Positions 227 through 25,049 of a DNA stretch of 64,000 nucleotides are shown in pieces; the first letter of the stretch is position 1, and each line of letters opens with the position of its first letter. A program made the translations under genes and the position numbers. The stretch is from Polyangiaceae bacterium. Its GTDB lineage: Bacteria > Myxococcota_A > Polyangia > Polyangiales > Polyangiaceae. Below the pieces are notes generated by a model, which saw only the letters and a list, made by a program, of their open reading frames with translations, did no database searches and was not told where the DNA came from. The DNA is taken from NCBI GenBank assembly GCA_020848455.1, contig JADLAB010000351.1, forward strand, positions 1 through 64,000, read 5' to 3'.

Positions 227-1135
227 CTACTTCGCGACGTTCTGCTTGGCGAGCGTCTCGTACACCTGCGCGATCGGCGTGCCGCTGGCGAGGAGGGCGT
301 CGGCCTTCTTGATCTCCGCCTCGACCACCGCGCCGAGGCCCTCGACGGAGCGCTGACCCTGGTAGAGCAGGCCGTTGACGAGGATGGTCGGCGTGCTGCG
401 CAGGCGCGCGTCGCGGCCGGCCTTGAGGTCGTTCTGCACCTCGGCCTTCACCTCGTCGCTGGCGAAGTCGGCCTTGAAGCGGTCGAGATCGCCGAGCCCC
501 ACCTGCTCGGCGAAACCTACCACCGTGTCGGGGCCGAGCGAGCGGGCGTTGGCGAACAGGAGCTCGCCGAGCTCCCAGCCCTTGCCCTGCCGGAGCGCCG
601 CCTGCATGGCGCGCGCCGCCGGATCGGAGCCCGGGTGATTCGGCAGCGGGAAGTGCCGCAGGTGCACCGCCACGCTGTCGCCGTACTTCTCGGACACTTG
701 CTTGAGGATCGGACCGACCCCCGCGCAGTGGGGTCACTGGAAGTCGCTGAATTCGAGGATCGTGACCTTGGCGTGCTCGGGACCGAGCCGCGGGCTCCAC
801 GCCCCGAGCGCGACGTAGGCGCCACCCTCCGCCGCGGCGGGCGGCCGCGGCCGGCCGGAGGCGTCGGCCCTGGCGGTCGCTGCGCCCGAGCTGCTCTTGC
901 CCGCGAAGTAGCCGCCTACGCCCCCGGCGGCGACGCCGACCACGAGCACGGCCGCGAGGTGGGCCCCCGTGAAGCGGCGCGCCTCGGGCGCCGGCTCGGG
1001 CGCGGGGCGCGGCGCCGCCGCGGAGGCGGCGCGCGGGCCTCGATCACCGCCCGCGGCGCGCGGACGCCTGCCTGCTTTGCGGGGGCGTGCCTCCGGGCGC
1101 GGCCCGTCGCCTGGCTCGTCGCTGTCGTCGACCAT
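227..1135 (-). CDS. Membrane-anchored DsbA-family selenoprotein (Sec134 encoded by in-frame TGA at 734-736)
   Basis: Read through the TGA at 734-736, the gene encodes 302 residues: a basic, Pro/Ala-rich cytoplasmic N-terminus, one membrane segment (about residues 57-78, ending GGVGGYFAGK), then a DsbA/thioredoxin_4 domain from about 105. The domain has TILEFSDFQ-U-PHC, where family members have FSDFQCPxC, so TGA falls exactly on the first active-site Cys (UxxC). The cis-Pro motif STPTILVNG follows near residue 260. Codon use and family similarity continue without break on both sides of the TGA, and a SECIS-like stem-loop lies just downstream. The likely role is periplasmic thiol-disulfide exchange or reduction. 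The final stop is TAG. No Shine-Dalgarno is seen at the ATG (1135). The alternative is a nonsense mutation of a Cys codon, which is less likely given the hairpin. Confidence 0.78.
704..722 (-). promoter_or_regulatory. Candidate bacterial SECIS element for Sec134
   Basis: In the minus-strand mRNA, 11 bases after the UGA triplet, GGGGGUC pairs with GAUCCUC (7 bp, two G-U pairs) around a 5-base loop GGUCC. The loop begins 18 bases after the UGA and starts with GG, matching the known bacterial SECIS pattern (an apical stem-loop with one or more G at the loop start, at about 16-37 bases). The loop resembles the GGUCU of E. coli fdhF. A competing stem (GACCCC of the UGA context with GGGGUC) is also possible. 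SelB binding is inferred, not shown. Confidence 0.68.
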
Positions 1136-1308: not shown

Positions 1309-2010
1309 TCACCAGCGGCAGAGGTCCGAGACCGCAGCGCCGGCGCCCGCGCCGGCGCCCGCGCTCGCCGCCGACCCGAGCGTCGCTCCTGCCGCCGCCG
1401 CCGTCGCGCTCGTCGCGAGCGGTCGCGTCCCGGCCGGGGTGCAGTCGCGCGCGTCGAAGGTCTTCTTCTCGAGGTCGAGGAGCTTCTGGGTCGGGTCGAC
1501 GAGGAGCTTATTGCGCTTGAACTTGCCGCTGCCCGAGAGGCTCTGGCCGCGCGCCGCCTCGTCGTAGAGCTCGAAGTGGAGCATGGACATCTTGAGGCTC
1601 GCGAGCCGGCCGACCGCGGCGATGAGCTCGCCCTCCGTCACCTTCGTGCCGGCCTTCAGCGCGGGCGCCGCGATGGCCGCGGAGGCGGCGGCGAGCCCCG
1701 CCTTCTCGCGCCCGGCCGCGAGCGACTTCTGCCACGACTTGTAGTGGCCGGGCGGCAAGATCTCCCCGTAGCGGACCACGCCGAAGCCCGGGTGGTGCAC
1801 CTCGAGCGCGTAGGTGTCGTCGTAGAAGAGGTAGGGCGCGAGGATGACCGTACCGTCGGCGACGGCGACGATCGGCGTGCCGACGGGGCCGTAGAGGTCG
1901 CAGCCGGCGTGGAGGCGCCCCTTGGAGCGCGCCGAGCCGAAGCGGCGCATGCCGCCGTTCGGGCCGGAGTAGGGTTCGGTGGGCCGCACGCGGAAGGGGA
2001 ATCGCGCCAT
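1309..2010 (-). CDS. M23-like (LytM) peptidase-fold protein, candidate T6SS effector
   Basis: This 233-residue protein has the LytM/M23 barrel: HAGCD (H34, D38) gives the first two zinc ligands and MLHFELYD (H145) the third. The position two before H145, normally the catalytic His of HxH, is Met143, so the fold may be a weak or inactive peptidase, or a variant that works differently. There is no signal peptide. The C-terminal 40 residues are an Ala/Gly-rich tail. It is divergent from vgrG with 51 bases between the starts, which suggests a T6SS-delivered murein-targeting effector or spike-associated protein. That role is inference from context; a cytoplasmic or phage-like role is possible. Confidence 0.65.
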   Translation of the reverse strand: MARFPFRVRPTEPYSGPNGGMRRFGSARSKGRLHAGCDLYGPVGTPIVAVADGTVILAPYLFYDDTYALEVHHPGFGVVRYGEILPPGHYKSWQKSLAAGREKAGLAAASAAIAAPALKAGTKVTEGELIAAVGRLASLKMSMLHFELYDEAARGQSLSGSGKFKRNKLLVDPTQKLLDLEKKTFDARDCTPAGTRPLATSATAAAAGATLGSAASAGAGAGAGAAVSDLCRW

Positions 2011-2061: not shown

Positions 2062-4215
2062 ATGCCGCTCTTGGAGCTCAGCGTCGCTTCCGGCGATGCC
2101 CTGTCGGTTCGGCGTTTCACCATCGAGGAGCGCATGAGCGCGCTCTTCTCGGTCGGCATCTGGGCGCGCTCGCCGAACGAGGACATCGACCTCGAGGCGG
2201 TGGTCGGTCGCGAGGCGAGCTTCCGCGTCGCCTCCGGCCTCAAGTTCGCGCAGGCGGGTGAGCGGCGCTTCACGGGCCTCTGCGCCACGATGGAGCTCCT
2301 GCACGTCGAGCCGAGCGGGCTGTCGACCTACCACCTCGTGCTCGTGCCGCGCCTGTGGCTGCTCGGAGAGCGCCGGAACCACCGGCTCTTCCAGCACCTC
2401 TCGGTGCCCGACATCGTGAAGAAGCTGTGCGACGAGTGGCAGGTGGCGCACCGCTTCCAGCTCGATCAGGCGCACCCGGTGCTCGAGCTCCGCACCCAGT
2501 ACGGCGAGAGCGATCTCGCCTTCCTGTCGCGCCTCTGCGAGGAGGCGGGCATCGCGTTCCGCTTCGCCGAGGACGACGAGGCGGGCAGCGTCGTCGTGTT
2601 CGACGATGCGCCGCAGGGGCGCGACCCGCGCGCGGCTTCGCTCGGCTACGTCGATCAGCCGAACGAGTCGGCCGAGCTCGAGTTCGCGACGGCGGTGCGG
2701 CTCGGTCAACAGGTGCGCTCGGGGCGCTTCGGGGTCCGCGACCACGACTTTCGCAGGAGCCCGAGGTACGAGCTCCTCGGCGCGACGCCGCGCACCGAGT
2801 CCGTCGAGGGCTCGCTCGAGCAGTACCAGTTCGCGCCGGGTGCGTCGGTCGTCGAGCGCTCGGGCGAGGCCGGCGGGGCAGCGCTCGTGGGCGACGACCA
2901 GGGGGTCGCCCGCCACGACGACAAGGCCGCCCTCGCGCGCGCCACGCGCCGGCTCGAGGCCGCAGCGGTGCGGCGCCGCGTCGTGTCCTTCCAGACGAAC
3001 GCGCTCGATCTCGCGCCCGGCGTCGTCTTGACGCTCGCCAAGCACCCGCGCAGCGATCTCGCCGACGCGCGCCTGCTCGTCACCGAGGTCCTGCTCGAGG
3101 GCTCGCCCGACGGGGCGTGGAGCCAGGCGGTGCAGGCCGCGTTCGCGACGCTGCCGTTCCGCCCGCGCGGCGCGCCGGCGCGGCCCGACGTGCAGGGCCT
3201 GCAGAGCGCGGTCGTCGTCGGGCCCCCGGGGGAAGAGATCTACACCGACGAGCTCGGGCGCGTGCGCGTCCAGTTCCACTGGGATCGCGAGGGGCGCTAC
3301 GACGACCGCTCGAGCTGCTTCATGCGCGTCAACCAGGGCTGGGCGGGCTCGGGCTTCGGCATGGTGACGATCCCGCGCGTGGGCCAGGAGGTTCTCGTCG
3401 CGTTCCTCGAGGGCAACCCGGACCAGCCGGTGGTCGTCGGGCGCCTCTACAACGCGACGGCCGTCCCGCCGTACCCCCTGCCGGAGCAGAAGACGAAGAG
3501 CGGCTGGCGCACGGACTCGTCGCCCGGCTCGGGCGGCTTCAACGAGCTCATGTTCGAGGATCTCAAGGGCCAGGAGCTCGTCTACGTCCAGGCCGAGCGC
3601 AACCTCGAGAAGCTCGTGAAGCTCGACGAGAGCGAGTCGACGGGGCGCGACCGCACGGTGAGCGTGCAGCAGAACCGCACGAGCTCGGTCGGCGGCGTCG
3701 ACGCGCTCACCGTCGGGGGCAAGTACGGCGTCACGATGGTGGCGCGCAACGGCGGCCCGGCGACCTCCGTCGAGATGGTCGATCAGCGCATCTGCCTCAC
3801 GACCGGGCAGGCGAGCATCGTGCTCGAGGGGCCGAACGTCACCATCGCTGCCCTCGGCACCATCAAGGTGAAGTCGAGCGGCGGCGACGTCGAGCTCGAG
3901 GGCGGCCCCTGGGTGAAGCTCAACTGCGGCACCGAGGCCTCGCCCGAGGCGCAGACCTTCACGATGCACCACGTCTCGGGCGTGCTTCGCGATCAGGACG
4001 GGGCACCGATCGCCGGCCAGACCGTGGTCGTGACCGGGAGCGACGGCGTCGCGCAGGCGGTCACGACCGATGCGAACGGCAGCTACGTCGCGCTCGTCGC
4101 GCCGGGACCGGCCGAGGTGAAGCTCCCCGAGGGCCTGCACTACGGCACGGGACCGGGTGCCGCCGAGGCGAGCACCGGGCCGGCGGCGGTCGAGGGGCAG
4201 GGGCCCGTCGTCTAG
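2062..4215 (+). CDS. vgrG: Type VI secretion tip protein VgrG with C-terminal TTR-like tail
   Basis: The 717-residue protein follows the VgrG plan. A gp27-like N-terminal region (residues about 1-380) contains the typical LSVPDIVKKLCDEW and YGESDLAFLSRLCEEAGIAF stretches. A gp5-like OB fold starts near residue 393 (IYTDELGRVRVQFHWDREG), followed by the beta-helix spike (NELMFEDLKGQELVYVQAER). From about residue 635 there is an extra small domain (SGVLRDQDGAPIAGQTVVV, TTDANGSYVALV) of the carboxypeptidase-regulatory/transthyretin-like type. In known T6SSs such tails on VgrG recruit effectors. The ATG at 2062 is preceded by a weak GGCGAGGG. It heads a cassette with a small unknown protein, PAAR and an M15 peptidase. 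Confidence 0.93.
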   Translation: MPLLELSVASGDALSVRRFTIEERMSALFSVGIWARSPNEDIDLEAVVGREASFRVASGLKFAQAGERRFTGLCATMELLHVEPSGLSTYHLVLVPRLWLLGERRNHRLFQHLSVPDIVKKLCDEWQVAHRFQLDQAHPVLELRTQYGESDLAFLSRLCEEAGIAFRFAEDDEAGSVVVFDDAPQGRDPRAASLGYVDQPNESAELEFATAVRLGQQVRSGRFGVRDHDFRRSPRYELLGATPRTESVEGSLEQYQFAPGASVVERSGEAGGAALVGDDQGVARHDDKAALARATRRLEAAAVRRRVVSFQTNALDLAPGVVLTLAKHPRSDLADARLLVTEVLLEGSPDGAWSQAVQAAFATLPFRPRGAPARPDVQGLQSAVVVGPPGEEIYTDELGRVRVQFHWDREGRYDDRSSCFMRVNQGWAGSGFGMVTIPRVGQEVLVAFLEGNPDQPVVVGRLYNATAVPPYPLPEQKTKSGWRTDSSPGSGGFNELMFEDLKGQELVYVQAERNLEKLVKLDESESTGRDRTVSVQQNRTSSVGGVDALTVGGKYGVTMVARNGGPATSVEMVDQRICLTTGQASIVLEGPNVTIAALGTIKVKSSGGDVELEGGPWVKLNCGTEASPEAQTFTMHHVSGVLRDQDGAPIAGQTVVVTGSDGVAQAVTTDANGSYVALVAPGPAEVKLPEGLHYGTGPGAAEASTGPAAVEGQGPVV

Positions 4216-4230
4216 AGGAGGAGCCGACCC

Positions 4231-4677
4231 TTGGCCGACATCTTCGTCCAGCTCCGCATGAAGAAGTGCTGCCGCGAGGCCCTCGCGCGGCTCGACGCCG
4301 CGCGCCGCCCGCTCCGCGCCGACGCGGCGGTCGGCAAGGTCGCCGTGCTCGAAGAGGAGCTCGGAGCGCAGCCCCTGCCGGTGGGCGCCGAGCGCCTCCG
4401 GGCCGAGCGCGCCGGCAGCGCGGGCGGGCGGCTCCCGAGCGAGCTCGAGGCGCGCGTCCACCGCCTCTGCATCGCGGCCTCGGACGAGCACGCGCTCGCG
4501 CACCACGAGGCGGGCGAGGTCGGCGAGGCCGCGTTCTGGCAACAGGTGAGCGCGCTCCTCGCCGATTTCGTCGCGGGCAAGCTGCCCGCCACCGGGGCCG
4601 CGGACGCGAGCGCTCCGGCGCTGCTCATCCCGGCCCGGGCGGGCACCGCGGGCGCCGGCGGGCGCGGCAGGAGCTGA
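4231..4677 (+). CDS. Small unknown protein of the VgrG cassette (possible adaptor)
   Basis: No family was recognised in this 148-residue protein. The TTG start is supported by a strong GAGGAGGAG at 4215-4223, seven bases upstream, partly formed by the end of vgrG. The sequence is alpha-helical and Ala/Glu/Arg-rich, with a Lys-Cys-Cys near the N-terminus (MKKCCREAL) and an Ala/Gly-rich tail; there is no signal peptide or membrane segment. It lies 15 bases after vgrG and one base before the PAAR gene, so it is surely co-translated with the spike. Size and position fit an effector adaptor/chaperone, but that is only inferred. Confidence 0.7.
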   Translation: MADIFVQLRMKKCCREALARLDAARRPLRADAAVGKVAVLEEELGAQPLPVGAERLRAERAGSAGGRLPSELEARVHRLCIAASDEHALAHHEAGEVGEAAFWQQVSALLADFVAGKLPATGAADASAPALLIPARAGTAGAGGRGRS

Positions 4678-4678
4678 C

Positions 4679-5182
4679 ATGGGCGGACGCGATCCACGGC
4701 GACCGGCACGCCTCGGCGACACCACCCGTCACGGTGGCGTCACCGGGCGCTTCGTGCAGGCCTCGGCCGACGTGCTCATCCACGGCATCCGCGCGGTGCG
4801 CGTGGGCGACGAGGCGCGCCTCGACGACGGCAAGATCTCCGTCGCGGCCGCGACGAGCCCGACCGTGCTCGTGAACCGGCGGCGCATCCAGCGCGTGACC
4901 GATCCGCTCGACGGCCCGAGCGGCAACTCGGTGCAGGGCGGCAACTTCGTCCTCGTCGGGGGCCCGCCGCCGGGCGGCGCCGAAGAGCACTACGAGGGCG
5001 GCTTCCGCGTGGTCGACGAGGCGGGCAGCCCCCTCGCGCGCGTGCGCTACTGCATCCGCTCGCCGAGCGGCGTCGAGACGTGGGGTCGCACCGACGAGGA
5101 CGGCCACACCGACACCGTGTACTCGGCCGAGCCAGAGGAGCTCGAGCTCGAGGTCTTCTCGGACGGCCCCTGCTGCAGCTGA
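4679..5182 (+). CDS. PAAR-domain spike-tip protein with C-terminal TTR-like extension
   Basis: The 167-residue protein starts with a PAAR repeat domain: ARLGDTTRHGG, ADVLIHGIRAVRVGDEARLD, SPTVLVNRRRIQRVTD, and SVQGGNFVLVGG close the cone seen in PAAR proteins, which cap the VgrG needle. From about residue 105 an extension (YEGGFRVVDEAGSPLARVRY, TDEDGHTDTVYSAEPEELEL) forms a small beta-domain of the kind often fused to PAAR and VgrG proteins, similar in style to the VgrG tail upstream. It is separated by one base from the preceding gene and eight bases from the M15 effector gene, so delivery of that effector by this tip is likely. Confidence 0.88.
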   Translation: MGGRDPRRPARLGDTTRHGGVTGRFVQASADVLIHGIRAVRVGDEARLDDGKISVAAATSPTVLVNRRRIQRVTDPLDGPSGNSVQGGNFVLVGGPPPGGAEEHYEGGFRVVDEAGSPLARVRYCIRSPSGVETWGRTDEDGHTDTVYSAEPEELELEVFSDGPCCS

Positions 5183-5190
5183 CGCGATCC

Positions 5191-5967
5191 ATGACCACCG
5201 CGACGCACAAGTCGAAGCAGAAGACCGCCAAGAAGGGCGCCGGCAAGGCGGCCCACAAGGTCGTCAAGCCCGAGGAGGACAAGCCGGACCCCGCCAAGCC
5301 GGCCAACCTCAGCTACCAGGCGCTCGACAAGGACGCGACCTACGGCAAGGAGTTCGCGTACACCTGGGAGCTCGGCAGCGCGATCAACGCCAAGGCCAAG
5401 CAGTACCACGTCAAGATCACGACCAAGGACTGGGCCGCGGACTACATCGTCGCCATCAGCGTCCCCGAGGTCCCGAAGGTGTCGGGCCAGCGCCTGCACC
5501 GGCGCATCGCGGCGCAGTTCATCGGCTTCTACAAGGCCGCGGCGAAGAAGAGCCTCACGAGCCACTTCGTGTCGAACGACGGCGCGTTCTACCCGCGCAC
5601 CATCACCGGCAACAGCGGCAAGCTCTCGAACCACGCCATCGGCACGGCCGTCGATCTCAACGCGTCCACGAACGGCTACGGCGCCGTGCCGGCGAAGCGC
5701 GGCAAGGACGGCAGCGTGCGCGAGCTCGCCGACTTCTGCGGCGACTTCGGGCTCTACTGGGGCGGCTGGTACGGCAAGCACAAGGACGGCATGCACTTCG
5801 AGGCCGTCAAGGTGCTGGACGAGGCGGCCCTCAAGACCGCCTGCACGACCCACGGCGTCACCTACGAGTCGACCTGGGTCCCGGCCGCGCCGCCGAAGCC
5901 CGCGCCGAAGCCACCCGCGCCGAAGCCCGGCGCCGGCGCGAAGGCCAAGGCTCCCGCGAAGAAGTGA
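5191..5967 (+). CDS. M15-family peptidoglycan peptidase, likely T6SS effector
   Basis: The 258-residue protein carries the M15 zinc site: SNHAIGTAVDLN (H148, D155) and KDGMHFEA (D199, H202). Asp at the D-x-x-H position matches the M15C group (phage Ply500-like L-alanyl-D-glutamate or D-Ala peptidases). The core (about residues 60-215) is flanked by a Lys-rich N-terminus (HKSKQKTAKKGAGK) and a Pro/Lys-rich tail. There is no signal peptide, as expected for a protein injected into a target periplasm. It is the last gene of the vgrG-PAAR cassette, eight bases after PAAR. No candidate periplasmic immunity gene follows; the next genes are a toxin-antitoxin pair. The start is the ATG just after the PAAR stop, without a clear Shine-Dalgarno. 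Confidence 0.83.
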   Translation: MTTATHKSKQKTAKKGAGKAAHKVVKPEEDKPDPAKPANLSYQALDKDATYGKEFAYTWELGSAINAKAKQYHVKITTKDWAADYIVAISVPEVPKVSGQRLHRRIAAQFIGFYKAAAKKSLTSHFVSNDGAFYPRTITGNSGKLSNHAIGTAVDLNASTNGYGAVPAKRGKDGSVRELADFCGDFGLYWGGWYGKHKDGMHFEAVKVLDEAALKTACTTHGVTYESTWVPAAPPKPAPKPPAPKPGAGAKAKAPAKK

Positions 5968-22508: not shown

Positions 22509-25049
22509 TCAGCCCTCCGAGTCGGACTTGCGCGCGGTCGAGCGCTGCGACAGCTGGGCCCGCACCGTGCGTCCGGCCAGCTCGCGCCCCGCGAGCGCCG
22601 TCAGGGCTGCCTGCGCGTGGAGGTCGACGACCTCGACGAAGGTGTAGCGGTCGCGCATGCGCACCCCGCGCACGGCGCCGGGCGGCAGACTCGCGAGGGC
22701 GTCCTTGACGTCGCGGACCTTCAGCCCGTCGCGTCGGCCGACGTTGACGTGCAGCTCGGACGAGCGGCCCTCGATGCGGTGCGTCGTGGCGGCATCGTCG
22801 TCGTCGTCGAGGTCGTCCTCGTCGTCCATGTCGAGCCGCGCGATGGGCGGCGGCTGCGGTGCAGGCAGCGGCGGCCGCCGCTGCTGCCCGGCCCCACGCG
22901 GCACCGTGACCGGCTCGACGTCGGCGCTGGCGGTCTCGACGGCGATCTCGCGTGCGGCGGTGATCGGCGGGCCGGCCGGCACGGGGGAGATCTGGACCGT
23001 GACCGTCTCGTCGTGGTCGTGCGCGGGCCCGCGCACGCTGCGGCGCTCGAGCACGCGGTAGCGCACCTGCTCGGTCGGCCCGCCGGGCGGCGCGGCGGGC
23101 GCCGTGCGGCGGGTTGCGAGTGGCTCCGCCTGCGCGCGGGTCGCCGGCGCGGCGACCGGCGGCACCGGTGCGGCGACCGGCGGCACCGGTGCGGCGACCG
23201 GCGGCTCCTCGGCGGCGACGGGCGGCACCGGCGCGGCGACCGGCGCGGCGACCGGCGGGCGCGGGACGGCGGCCGGCGTCGTCACCACCGCCTCGGCCTG
23301 GGCCGAGGGCGTCGCGGGGGCCGGCTCGGGGCCGGGCATGGCCTCGTCCCCGCCGGGGCCGCCGCGCGAGCGTCCCCGCCCCGGTCCGCCCTCGCGCGGG
23401 CCCCGGTCGCGGTCGCCGCGGTCGCGGCGACCCTCTCGACCAGCCTCGCCGCGGACCGGTGCGCGCTCGCGCCGCTCGCCCTCGCGCGCCCCGGATCGAG
23501 CGGCCTCGGGCTCGCGGCGCGGGCCGGGCCGGGCAGGCTCCTCCGGCTCGGCCGCGGGCGGGGGGGGCGTCTCGCGCCTGCGGCGCGCAGCCTCGTCGGG
23601 GAGCTCCGGGCGCGCAGCCAGGTGCTCGTGCAGGATGCCGGCGAGGATCGCCTCGCAGTCGTCGTGGGTGAGCAGACGGCGCGCGAGCGCCCGGTATTCG
23701 GGGTCGCGTCCGCGGGGCGCGAAGGTCGCGCTCAGGCTCTCGACGATGTCGGCCTCGCCGCGCGTGCGCTGCTCGGTCATCGTGGGCAGGCGCCGCTCGA
23801 TCGGGCGGATCTTGTACGTGAGCCGCACGAGGTAGAGCGCACCGATGTCCTGCGGGTTGACGAGCGACACCGCCGTGCCGGTGCGGCCCGCGCGGCCGGT
23901 GCGGCCGGTGCGATGCACGTAGGCCTCGGCGTCCTGCGGGAAGTCGTAGTTGATGACGTGGGTGAGGTGCGAGATGTCGATGCCCCGCGCGGCCACGTCC
24001 GTGGCGACGAGGTAGCGCAGGCGGCCCTCGCGCGCGGCGCGCATCGTCTTCTCGCGGTCGCTCTGGGGCAGATCGCCGTTGAGCCAGTCGGCGTCGTAGC
24101 CGAGCCGGCACAGGCCCTGCGCCAGGCGCTCGGTGGCCTCGCGCGTGTTGCAGAAGATGAGCGCGCCCTCGGGGTTCTCGACCTCGAGGATCGCGGCCAG
24201 GGCGGCGAGCTTGTCGCCGCTCACGAAGTAGATGAAGTGCTGGATCTCGAGCGCGCCGATGTGGTCGCCCGACAGGGTGATGAACTCTGGCTTGCGCAGC
24301 TTGGTGCGCGCCATGCGCTCGATGTCGGGCGGGAGCGTGGCGCTGAAGAGCAGCGTCTGCCGGTTCTCGGGGAGGCGCTCCATGATGGCGTTGAGCTCGC
24401 GCTCGAAGCCCATGCTGAGCATCTCGTCGGCCTCGTCGAGCACGAGGGTGCGGATGTTGCTCGGGTCGAGCGTGCGGCGCCGCAGGTGGTCGAGCATGCG
24501 CCCGGGCGTGGCGACGACGATCTGCGCGCCGTTGGCGATGGCCTGGACCTGCGGCGGCATCGGGGCGCCGCCGTAGATGGCGACGGGCTCGATCTCGCGG
24601 TGCTTGCCGAGCAGGGCGATCTCGCGCGACACCTGGACCGCGAGCTCGCGGGTGGGGCACAGCACGAGGGCCTGGGGCACCTTCTGCGAACGACGCACCA
24701 GGCGATCGACCATCGGCAGACCGAAGGCCGCCGTCTTGCCCGTTCCGGTGCGCGCCTGCACCACGCAGTCGGTGCCCGAGCAGGCGGGCTGCCACACGGC
24801 GAGCTGCACCGGCGTGGGCGTGACGTAGCCCATCTCGCGGAGCGACTCGCGCAGCTCGGCGGACAGCGGCAGCGCGTCGAAAGTGGGCGGAGCAGGGGCC
24901 TCGCCCGGATCGGCGGCGGCGCTCGCCGCGGGGCTGTCCAGGCGCTCTTTGCCCGGCGTGTTGTCTGTCACCATGGGGGTCTCGATGTTCGTGCCCGCCG
25001 CTGCCGCGCGGGGGCGCGGGGGCGGTCCTCGGGCTCGGGCCACGGGCAT
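22509..25049 (-). CDS. DEAD-box RNA helicase with C-terminal DbpA-type RNA-binding domain
   Basis: The helicase core (about residues 55-430) shows the Q motif (FDALPLSAELRESLREMGY), ARTGTGKT, PTRELAVQ, LVLDEADEML, FSATLPPD, IFCNTREATERLA, ATDVAARGID and HRTGRTGRAGRTG. It is followed by a long Pro/Ala/Arg/Glu linker containing repeats of PVPPVAA and an Arg/Glu/Gly stretch, and ends with a DbpA-like RNA-recognition fold (LHVNVGRRDGLKVRDV, VRGVRMRDRYTFVEV). The protein of 846 residues is of the DeaD/CsdA type and would remodel ribosomal or mRNA structures. The ATG at 25049 is used, but the in-frame ATG at 24974 (MVTDNTPGKERL) is equally plausible because the first 25 residues are low-complexity. 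Confidence 0.92.
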   Translation of the reverse strand: MPVARARGPPPRPRAAAAGTNIETPMVTDNTPGKERLDSPAASAAADPGEAPAPPTFDALPLSAELRESLREMGYVTPTPVQLAVWQPACSGTDCVVQARTGTGKTAAFGLPMVDRLVRRSQKVPQALVLCPTRELAVQVSREIALLGKHREIEPVAIYGGAPMPPQVQAIANGAQIVVATPGRMLDHLRRRTLDPSNIRTLVLDEADEMLSMGFERELNAIMERLPENRQTLLFSATLPPDIERMARTKLRKPEFITLSGDHIGALEIQHFIYFVSGDKLAALAAILEVENPEGALIFCNTREATERLAQGLCRLGYDADWLNGDLPQSDREKTMRAAREGRLRYLVATDVAARGIDISHLTHVINYDFPQDAEAYVHRTGRTGRAGRTGTAVSLVNPQDIGALYLVRLTYKIRPIERRLPTMTEQRTRGEADIVESLSATFAPRGRDPEYRALARRLLTHDDCEAILAGILHEHLAARPELPDEAARRRRETPPPPAAEPEEPARPGPRREPEAARSGAREGERRERAPVRGEAGREGRRDRGDRDRGPREGGPGRGRSRGGPGGDEAMPGPEPAPATPSAQAEAVVTTPAAVPRPPVAAPVAAPVPPVAAEEPPVAAPVPPVAAPVPPVAAPATRAQAEPLATRRTAPAAPPGGPTEQVRYRVLERRSVRGPAHDHDETVTVQISPVPAGPPITAAREIAVETASADVEPVTVPRGAGQQRRPPLPAPQPPPIARLDMDDEDDLDDDDDAATTHRIEGRSSELHVNVGRRDGLKVRDVKDALASLPPGAVRGVRMRDRYTFVEVVDLHAQAALTALAGRELAGRTVRAQLSQRSTARKSDSEG

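What the first reader, a model, noticed from the sequence alone, without database searches (positions are those of the whole stretch)
227..1135. In-frame TGA at the first active-site Cys of a DsbA-family gene: probable selenoprotein
The two open stretches 734-1135 and 227-733 (minus strand) join across one TGA into a complete membrane-anchored DsbA-like protein. The TGA takes exactly the position of the first Cys in FSDFQCPxC, leaving U-P-H-C. Chance mutation would rarely hit this single codon while both sides stay intact.
Basis: partly seen in the sequence, partly recalled or inferred. Interest (0 to 1): 0.85.

Follow-up and report, generated by a model that had tools for sequence, protein, structure and literature searches.

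The report
Selenocysteine-containing DsbA-like protein in Myxococcota
A gene for a membrane-anchored disulfide-handling enzyme carries a 'stop' codon exactly where its key cysteine should be; the genome has the full set of genes to read that codon as selenocysteine, and relatives keep the same arrangement, so this is a genuine new example of an already known class of selenium protein.

Summary
One TGA (734-736, minus strand) interrupts a 302-residue DsbA-like gene at the first active-site Cys (FSDFQ-U-PHC), and everything else is intact. The genome encodes tRNA-Sec, SelA, SelB (next to tRNA-Sec) and a SelD that itself has Sec. The bases after the UGA form a bacterial SECIS hairpin with apical loop GGUCC, the G and U at positions 23/24 as in E. 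coli fdhF. The SelD gene uses the same loop. The TGA is conserved in a congener (92% identity), in two other genera of the family, and in 13 further Myxococcota genomes. All 17 carriers have selA and/or selC. 17 of 18 loci keep GGUC at 22-25, against 2 of 131 Cys homologues. Selection downstream of the TGA equals that upstream (dN/dS 0.20 and 0.18).

DsbA-like UxxC selenoproteins have been known from sequence since 2005, so this is a new member of a known kind. Sec incorporation and redox direction are inferred; no experiment was available. In passing: tandem DsbA-like proteins with two or three UGAs in other Myxococcota. One correction: in this 75% GC genome, TGAs open on both sides are common (155 in the window), so openness alone was weak evidence.

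The parts
227..1135 (-). Complete DsbA-like selenoprotein gene, 302 residues, ATG...TGA(Sec134)...TAG
   Evidence: searches (translation with TGA=U; Pfam DSBA and Thioredoxin_4), 92% identical orthologue with the same TGA in the congener
734..736 (-). In-frame TGA read as selenocysteine, first residue of the U-P-H-C active site
   Evidence: aligns with the first Cys of CPxC homologues
704..722 (-). SECIS hairpin, 7 pairs (8 in the minimum-energy fold), positions +15 to +33 counted from the U of the UGA
   Evidence: fits the published bSECIS constraints given in PMC13188914
711..715 (-). Apical loop GGUCC (positions 22-26); G23 and U24 in the positions reported for E. coli fdhF
   Evidence: G23/U24 positions from PMC8659212
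725..727 (-). Resolving Cys codon (C137) of U-P-H-C
   Evidence: invariant in 14 Sec proteins
905..973 (-). Hydrophobic segment near residues 55-77, likely signal anchor placing the thioredoxin domain in the periplasm
   Evidence: Read from the translation; helix 58-69 in the model but at low confidence. Inferred; no topology predictor was run
386..394 (-). T248-P249-T250, the cis-proline loop motif of thioredoxin-fold oxidoreductases
   Evidence: T248 and P249 invariant in the Sec alignment

Best explanation
The gene encodes a membrane-anchored periplasmic thiol:disulfide oxidoreductase of the DsbA family whose nucleophilic active-site residue is selenocysteine (U134-P-H-C137). During translation, SelB loaded with Sec-tRNA(Sec) binds the GGUCC-loop hairpin that starts 11 nt after the UGA and decodes the UGA as Sec instead of letting it terminate. 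The mature domain would exchange disulfides through a selenenylsulfide intermediate between U134 and C137. Shown by sequence: the gene structure, the machinery, the hairpin, and conservation of the TGA, the hairpin and the protein. Inferred: actual Sec insertion, membrane topology, and whether it acts as oxidase, isomerase or reductase. VKOR-family proteins, possible re-oxidants, are encoded in the genome, but no link to this protein was shown.
For: Single TGA exactly at the first CPxC cysteine in an otherwise intact DsbA-like gene. tRNA-Sec at 75.4 bits with TCA anticodon; selA 470 bits, selB 293 bits on the same contig right beside selC, selD 312 bits, all over curated cut-offs. SelD has its own in-frame TGA (GGGUARK) with a GGUCC-loop hairpin at spacing 26 nt, so the host has a second Sec gene with the same loop. 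Same TGA in G001, G025, G131, G050 and 12 more genomes in the wider phylum; the reversed-pattern control gave 1 hit in the order and 0 in the phylum sample. Hairpin: 18/18 Sec loci fit the bSECIS rules against 36/131 Cys homologues; GGU at 22-24 in 17/18 against 2/131; synonymous reshuffles give the strict loop in 3.6% and an equally stable hairpin in 2.4%. 94.6% of stem cells pair, with compensatory changes (4 double-change cells), above all slid registers. Gly GGT is only 9.3% of Gly codons in window genes. dN/dS against G001: 0.18 upstream, 0.20 downstream, and no non-synonymous change in the 35 codons before the TGA. Every carrier genome has selA (16/17) and/or selC (14/17), against selC in 20/59 relatives. 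AlphaFold2 model pLDDT above 90 across the site and beyond; best structural matches are ScsC, BdbD and DsbA.
Against: No experimental evidence of Sec or selenium. The congener G001 has selA but no detected selC (86% complete). The hairpin alone is only moderately unusual against dinucleotide shuffles (z -1.6, 15 of 200 as good), and 2 of 131 Cys homologues carry the same loop. The genome is a MAG in 742 contigs; selB and selC lie on a 9.8 kb contig whose assignment rests on binning. No strong Shine-Dalgarno was seen upstream of the ATG.
Confidence: 0.95

Rival explanations
1. Pseudogene: a Cys codon mutated to a stop, leaving a dead or truncated DsbA.
For: A TGC/TGT to TGA change is a single substitution; open reading on both sides of a TGA is common in this 75% GC window.
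Against: Same TGA in independent genomes across the phylum; dN/dS 0.20 downstream against 0.18 upstream; SECIS conserved with compensating stem changes; carriers all have Sec machinery genes.
Confidence: 0.02
2. Sequencing or assembly error at a TGC/TGT codon.
For: The source is a fragmented metagenome-assembled genome.
Against: The congener, assembled separately and 92% identical, has TGA there, as do G025, G131 and others.
Confidence: 0.005
3. UGA is read through as another residue (for example Trp by near-cognate suppression or a reassigned code) instead of Sec.
For: TGA is simply open in frame.
Against: Position is always the catalytic Cys; dedicated tRNA-Sec and SelB are present; SECIS conserved; genes elsewhere in the window do not show the in-frame coding-type TGA expected of a reassigned code.
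Confidence: 0.015
4. Two separate products: a deliberate short membrane peptide ending at the TGA, plus an internal start giving a soluble domain without the first Cys.
For: A GTG-started ORF exists at 227-697, and UGA termination competes with Sec insertion in general (PMC4513850 abstract reports 30-40% recoding in vivo).
Against: The internal product would lack the active site and the first strand of the fold; the conserved SECIS has no role in that reading.
Confidence: 0.01

Closest known systems
DsbA-like selenoprotein family, form 1 (PF01323, UxxC; Sargasso Sea 2005 PMC1088965; PMC1794560; PMC5029168; PMC13188914)
   Same: DSBA-domain thioredoxin fold, Sec in the first position of UxxC, SECIS immediately after the UGA.
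   Different: This one has an N-terminal polar region and putative membrane anchor and lies in Myxococcota; no detailed comparison with the catalogued sequences was possible here.
NCBIfam NF041057 Rcas_1661 family thioredoxin-like (seleno)lipoprotein (listed as DsbG-like in PMC13188914)
   Same: The only NCBIfam model that matches, over residues 117-273, and itself a Sec/Cys family.
   Different: Score 55 against a cut-off of 190, so not a member; putative anchor instead of a lipoprotein signal.
Cys-containing periplasmic oxidoreductases ScsC (Proteus, Salmonella, Caulobacter), BdbD (Bacillus), 3gyk (Silicibacter)
   Same: Closest solved structures by sequence and fold (Z 19-20 over about 170 residues; E down to 2.7e-21).
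   Different: Cys, not Sec, at the nucleophile; 21-28% identity.
E. coli fdhF SECIS
   Same: Apical loop with G23 and U24 at the same distance from the UGA.
   Different: No bulged U17 in the predicted stem; longer uninterrupted upper stem.

Membership tests
Bacterial selenoprotein (SelB/bSECIS type) | In-frame UGA aligned with Cys of homologues, with conserved sequence on both sides | tested here: met
Bacterial selenoprotein (SelB/bSECIS type) | bSECIS: loop 3-9 nt, stem 4-16 bp, G in first two loop positions, 16-37 nt from UGA, MFE at most -7.5 (rules from PMC13188914) | tested here: met
   loop GGUCC/GUC, 7-8 bp, spacing 18-19 nt, -10.7 kcal/mol for the hairpin alone
Bacterial selenoprotein (SelB/bSECIS type) | Genome encodes SelA, SelB, SelD and tRNA-Sec | tested here: met
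   all over curated cut-offs
Bacterial selenoprotein (SelB/bSECIS type) | Selenium or Sec physically present in the protein | not testable with these tools
   needs mass spectrometry or 75Se labelling
DsbA-like selenoprotein (PF01323, UxxC) | PF01323 domain above its gathering score | tested here: met
   54.3 bits against 25.6
DsbA-like selenoprotein (PF01323, UxxC) | U-x-x-C active site | tested here: met
   U134-P-H-C137
DsbA-like selenoprotein (PF01323, UxxC) | Thioredoxin fold with helical insertion and cis-Pro loop | tested here: met
   T-P-T motif; helices 170-242 inserted between strands; Z 19-20 to ScsC/BdbD (predicted model, Cys in place of Sec)
NF041057 Rcas_1661 (seleno)lipoprotein | Score above NCBIfam cut-off 190 | tested here: not met
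   55.2 bits
Classical DsbA (disulfide-introducing oxidase) | Oxidase activity, re-oxidation by DsbB or VKOR | not testable with these tools
   VKOR homologues exist in the genome, but a partnership is not shown

The most novel reading that the evidence does not exclude
Myxococcota hold a distinct, uncatalogued branch of membrane-anchored DsbA-like selenoproteins with a near-invariant GGUC SECIS loop, gained or lost more than once, from which tandem proteins with two or three Sec active sites in one chain have arisen.
Probability: 0.4. Interest if true: 0.45.

Novelty: new member of a known kind. Interest (0 to 1): 0.35.

Why it matters
Read by the standard code, this gene looks like two fragments or a pseudogene; it is a working selenoenzyme candidate. 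It places Sec in periplasmic disulfide chemistry in Myxococcota; full-text searches for selenocysteine with Myxococcota or myxobacteria found no paper on their selenoproteins (most subscription journals are not in that library). Sec-decoding machinery is patchy in its relatives (tRNA-Sec in 20 of 59), so the group allows Sec/Cys exchange to be studied between close relatives.

Tried and rejected
Rfam scan of 1-2100 at E up to 1 gave nothing; this says little about a SECIS, which was tested directly instead. A strict coding-composition scan for other TGA-interrupted genes found none and missed this gene, so it was loosened; the other three candidates then lacked a coding-like position pattern. 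Own-genome paralogue L025 with '3 TGA' is an ordinary CPYC gene whose hit range ran past its true ends. A first alignment of L021 and L033 was made on mismatched strands and regions and is uninformative. L062 and L033 carry the same protein and are taken as the same congener genome, so they are not counted as independent. The dS comparison with G025 is saturated or erratic and is not used. A tree of 21 Sec and 130 Cys domains clusters Sec strongly (6 changes against 20 in shuffles; starred branches force at least 2), but support is too weak to settle the number of origins.

Full report
What was checked. On the minus strand an open frame runs from ATG at 1135 to a TAG ending at 227, broken by one TGA at 734-736. 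Read through, it is 302 residues: a polar, proline- and arginine-rich N-terminus, a hydrophobic segment near residues 55-77, and a DSBA/thioredoxin domain (Pfam Thioredoxin_4 75 bits, DSBA 54 bits). The TGA is the first residue of U-P-H-C, where homologues have Cys.

Is it more than chance? Openness on both sides is not rare here: 155 TGAs in this 75% GC window have at least 60 open codons on each side in some frame. Four pass a loose composition filter, and only this one has the normal codon-position pattern on both sides. What makes it significant is the exact position and its conservation.

Machinery. The window's genome (9.2 Mb, 742 contigs, 96.5% complete) has tRNA-Sec at 75.4 bits with a TCA anticodon, SelA (470 bits), SelB on the same contig beside tRNA-Sec (293 bits) and SelD (312 bits). 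SelD itself has an in-frame TGA in its active-site motif (GGGUARK), followed by a strong hairpin with loop GGUCC. So the genome has at least two Sec genes with the same loop.

SECIS. Counting the U of the UGA as 1, bases 15-33 form a 7-pair stem with loop G22 G23 U24 C25 C26. PMC8659212 names U17, G23 and U24 as the fixed bases of the E. coli fdhF element; G23 and U24 are at the same positions here, while a bulged U17 is not predicted. The hairpin satisfies all four constraints of the bSECIS model quoted in PMC13188914. Against shuffles of the 45 nt the fold energy alone is only modestly unusual (z -1.6), so the case rests on position and conservation.

Relatives. A congener (Myxococcales bacterium NC_groundwater_1660, L062, same protein as G001) has a 92% identical protein with the same TGA; G025 and G131 in the same family have it too (38-53% identity over the aligned proteins), as does G050 in the order. 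A pattern for F-x-D-[FY]-[QE]-UGA-P-x-C found 5 of 184 genomes in the order and 14 of 379 in an even sample of the phylum, while the reversed pattern gave 1 and 0. In 17 of 18 of these loci the loop GGUC is at 22-25. The stem pairs in 94.6% of cells with compensatory changes, better than any slid register. In two genomes the stem slides by one base while the loop stays put.

Controls. 131 Cys homologues, with the Cys codon put in place of UGA: 36 meet the loose bSECIS rules and 2 have GGU at 22-24, against 18/18 and 17/18 for Sec loci. Synonymous recoding of the window's own sequence gives the strict loop in 3.6% of draws and an equally stable hairpin in 2.4%. GGT is only 9.3% of glycine codons in the window's genes. 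dN/dS between this gene and the congener is 0.18 before and 0.20 after the TGA, so the downstream part is under selection as protein.

Co-occurrence. Of 17 carrier genomes, 14 have tRNA-Sec, 16 have SelA, and all have at least one; among 59 relatives at large, 20 have tRNA-Sec. The congener lacks a detected tRNA-Sec but has SelA and is 86% complete.

Structure and function. The AlphaFold2 model (14 sequences, Cys in place of Sec) has pLDDT above 90 over nearly all of the domain, including the residues after the TGA. Best matches are ScsC, BdbD and DsbA proteins, Z about 19-20 over roughly 170 residues. With the likely N-terminal anchor this points to a periplasmic thiol:disulfide oxidoreductase. 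Direction is not determined; the genome has twelve further DsbA-like matches and two VKOR-family matches. The gene stands apart: an M23 peptidase gene lies upstream on the same strand, then VgrG, PAAR and M15-peptidase genes on the other, with no obvious redox partner.

Compared with what is known. DsbA-like UxxC selenoproteins were predicted in the Sargasso Sea data (9 sequences, PMC1088965), in genomes in 2006 (PMC1794560), in 41 organisms by 2016 (PMC5029168), in GOS data (PMC2398784), and are listed as 'DsbA-like protein form 1' in the 2026 review (PMC13188914). This is a new member of that kind. No paper on Myxococcota selenoproteins turned up in the open full-text library, though absence there is weak evidence. 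Tandem relatives with two or three UGAs in one chain go beyond the single-Sec entry in that review and are noted separately.

What remains inferred: that Sec is actually inserted, its efficiency, the membrane topology, and the physiological role.

Noticed in passing
L118 (G356:C11), L117 (G379:C452), L116 (G300:C213): Tandem DsbA-like proteins with three (L118) or two (L117, L116) in-frame UGAs, each at the first active-site position and each followed by a SECIS-like hairpin; the first-domain hairpins of L116 and L117 have a different loop (GUA). L118 is cut by the locus edge, so more domains may exist.
   Followed up: partly
L111 (G050:C84): Multi-domain DsbA-like protein whose first domain has UPFC and whose next two domains have CPFC: mixed Sec and Cys active sites in one chain.
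   Followed up: partly
L018:1501-2424 (G000:C11:39229-40152): SelD of this genome has an in-frame TGA in its active-site motif (GGGUARK) and a hairpin with the same GGUCC loop 26 nt downstream.
   Followed up: yes
L046 and L061: Two Cys-containing DsbA homologues keep GGUCC at 22-26 with a hairpin after the Cys codon; they could be recent Sec-to-Cys reversions.
   Followed up: no
2062-5964 (+), 1312-2010 (-): Type VI secretion VgrG gene (Phage_GPD, Gp5_trimer_C, phage base V) followed by PAAR and M15-peptidase genes, with a divergent M23-peptidase gene next to the selenoprotein gene: a likely T6SS spike and cargo cluster.
   Followed up: partly
5557-5646 (-) and 23096-23190 (+): ARAGORN calls a tRNA-Asn inside a protein-coding region and a tRNA with undetermined anticodon; both look like false positives.
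   Followed up: no
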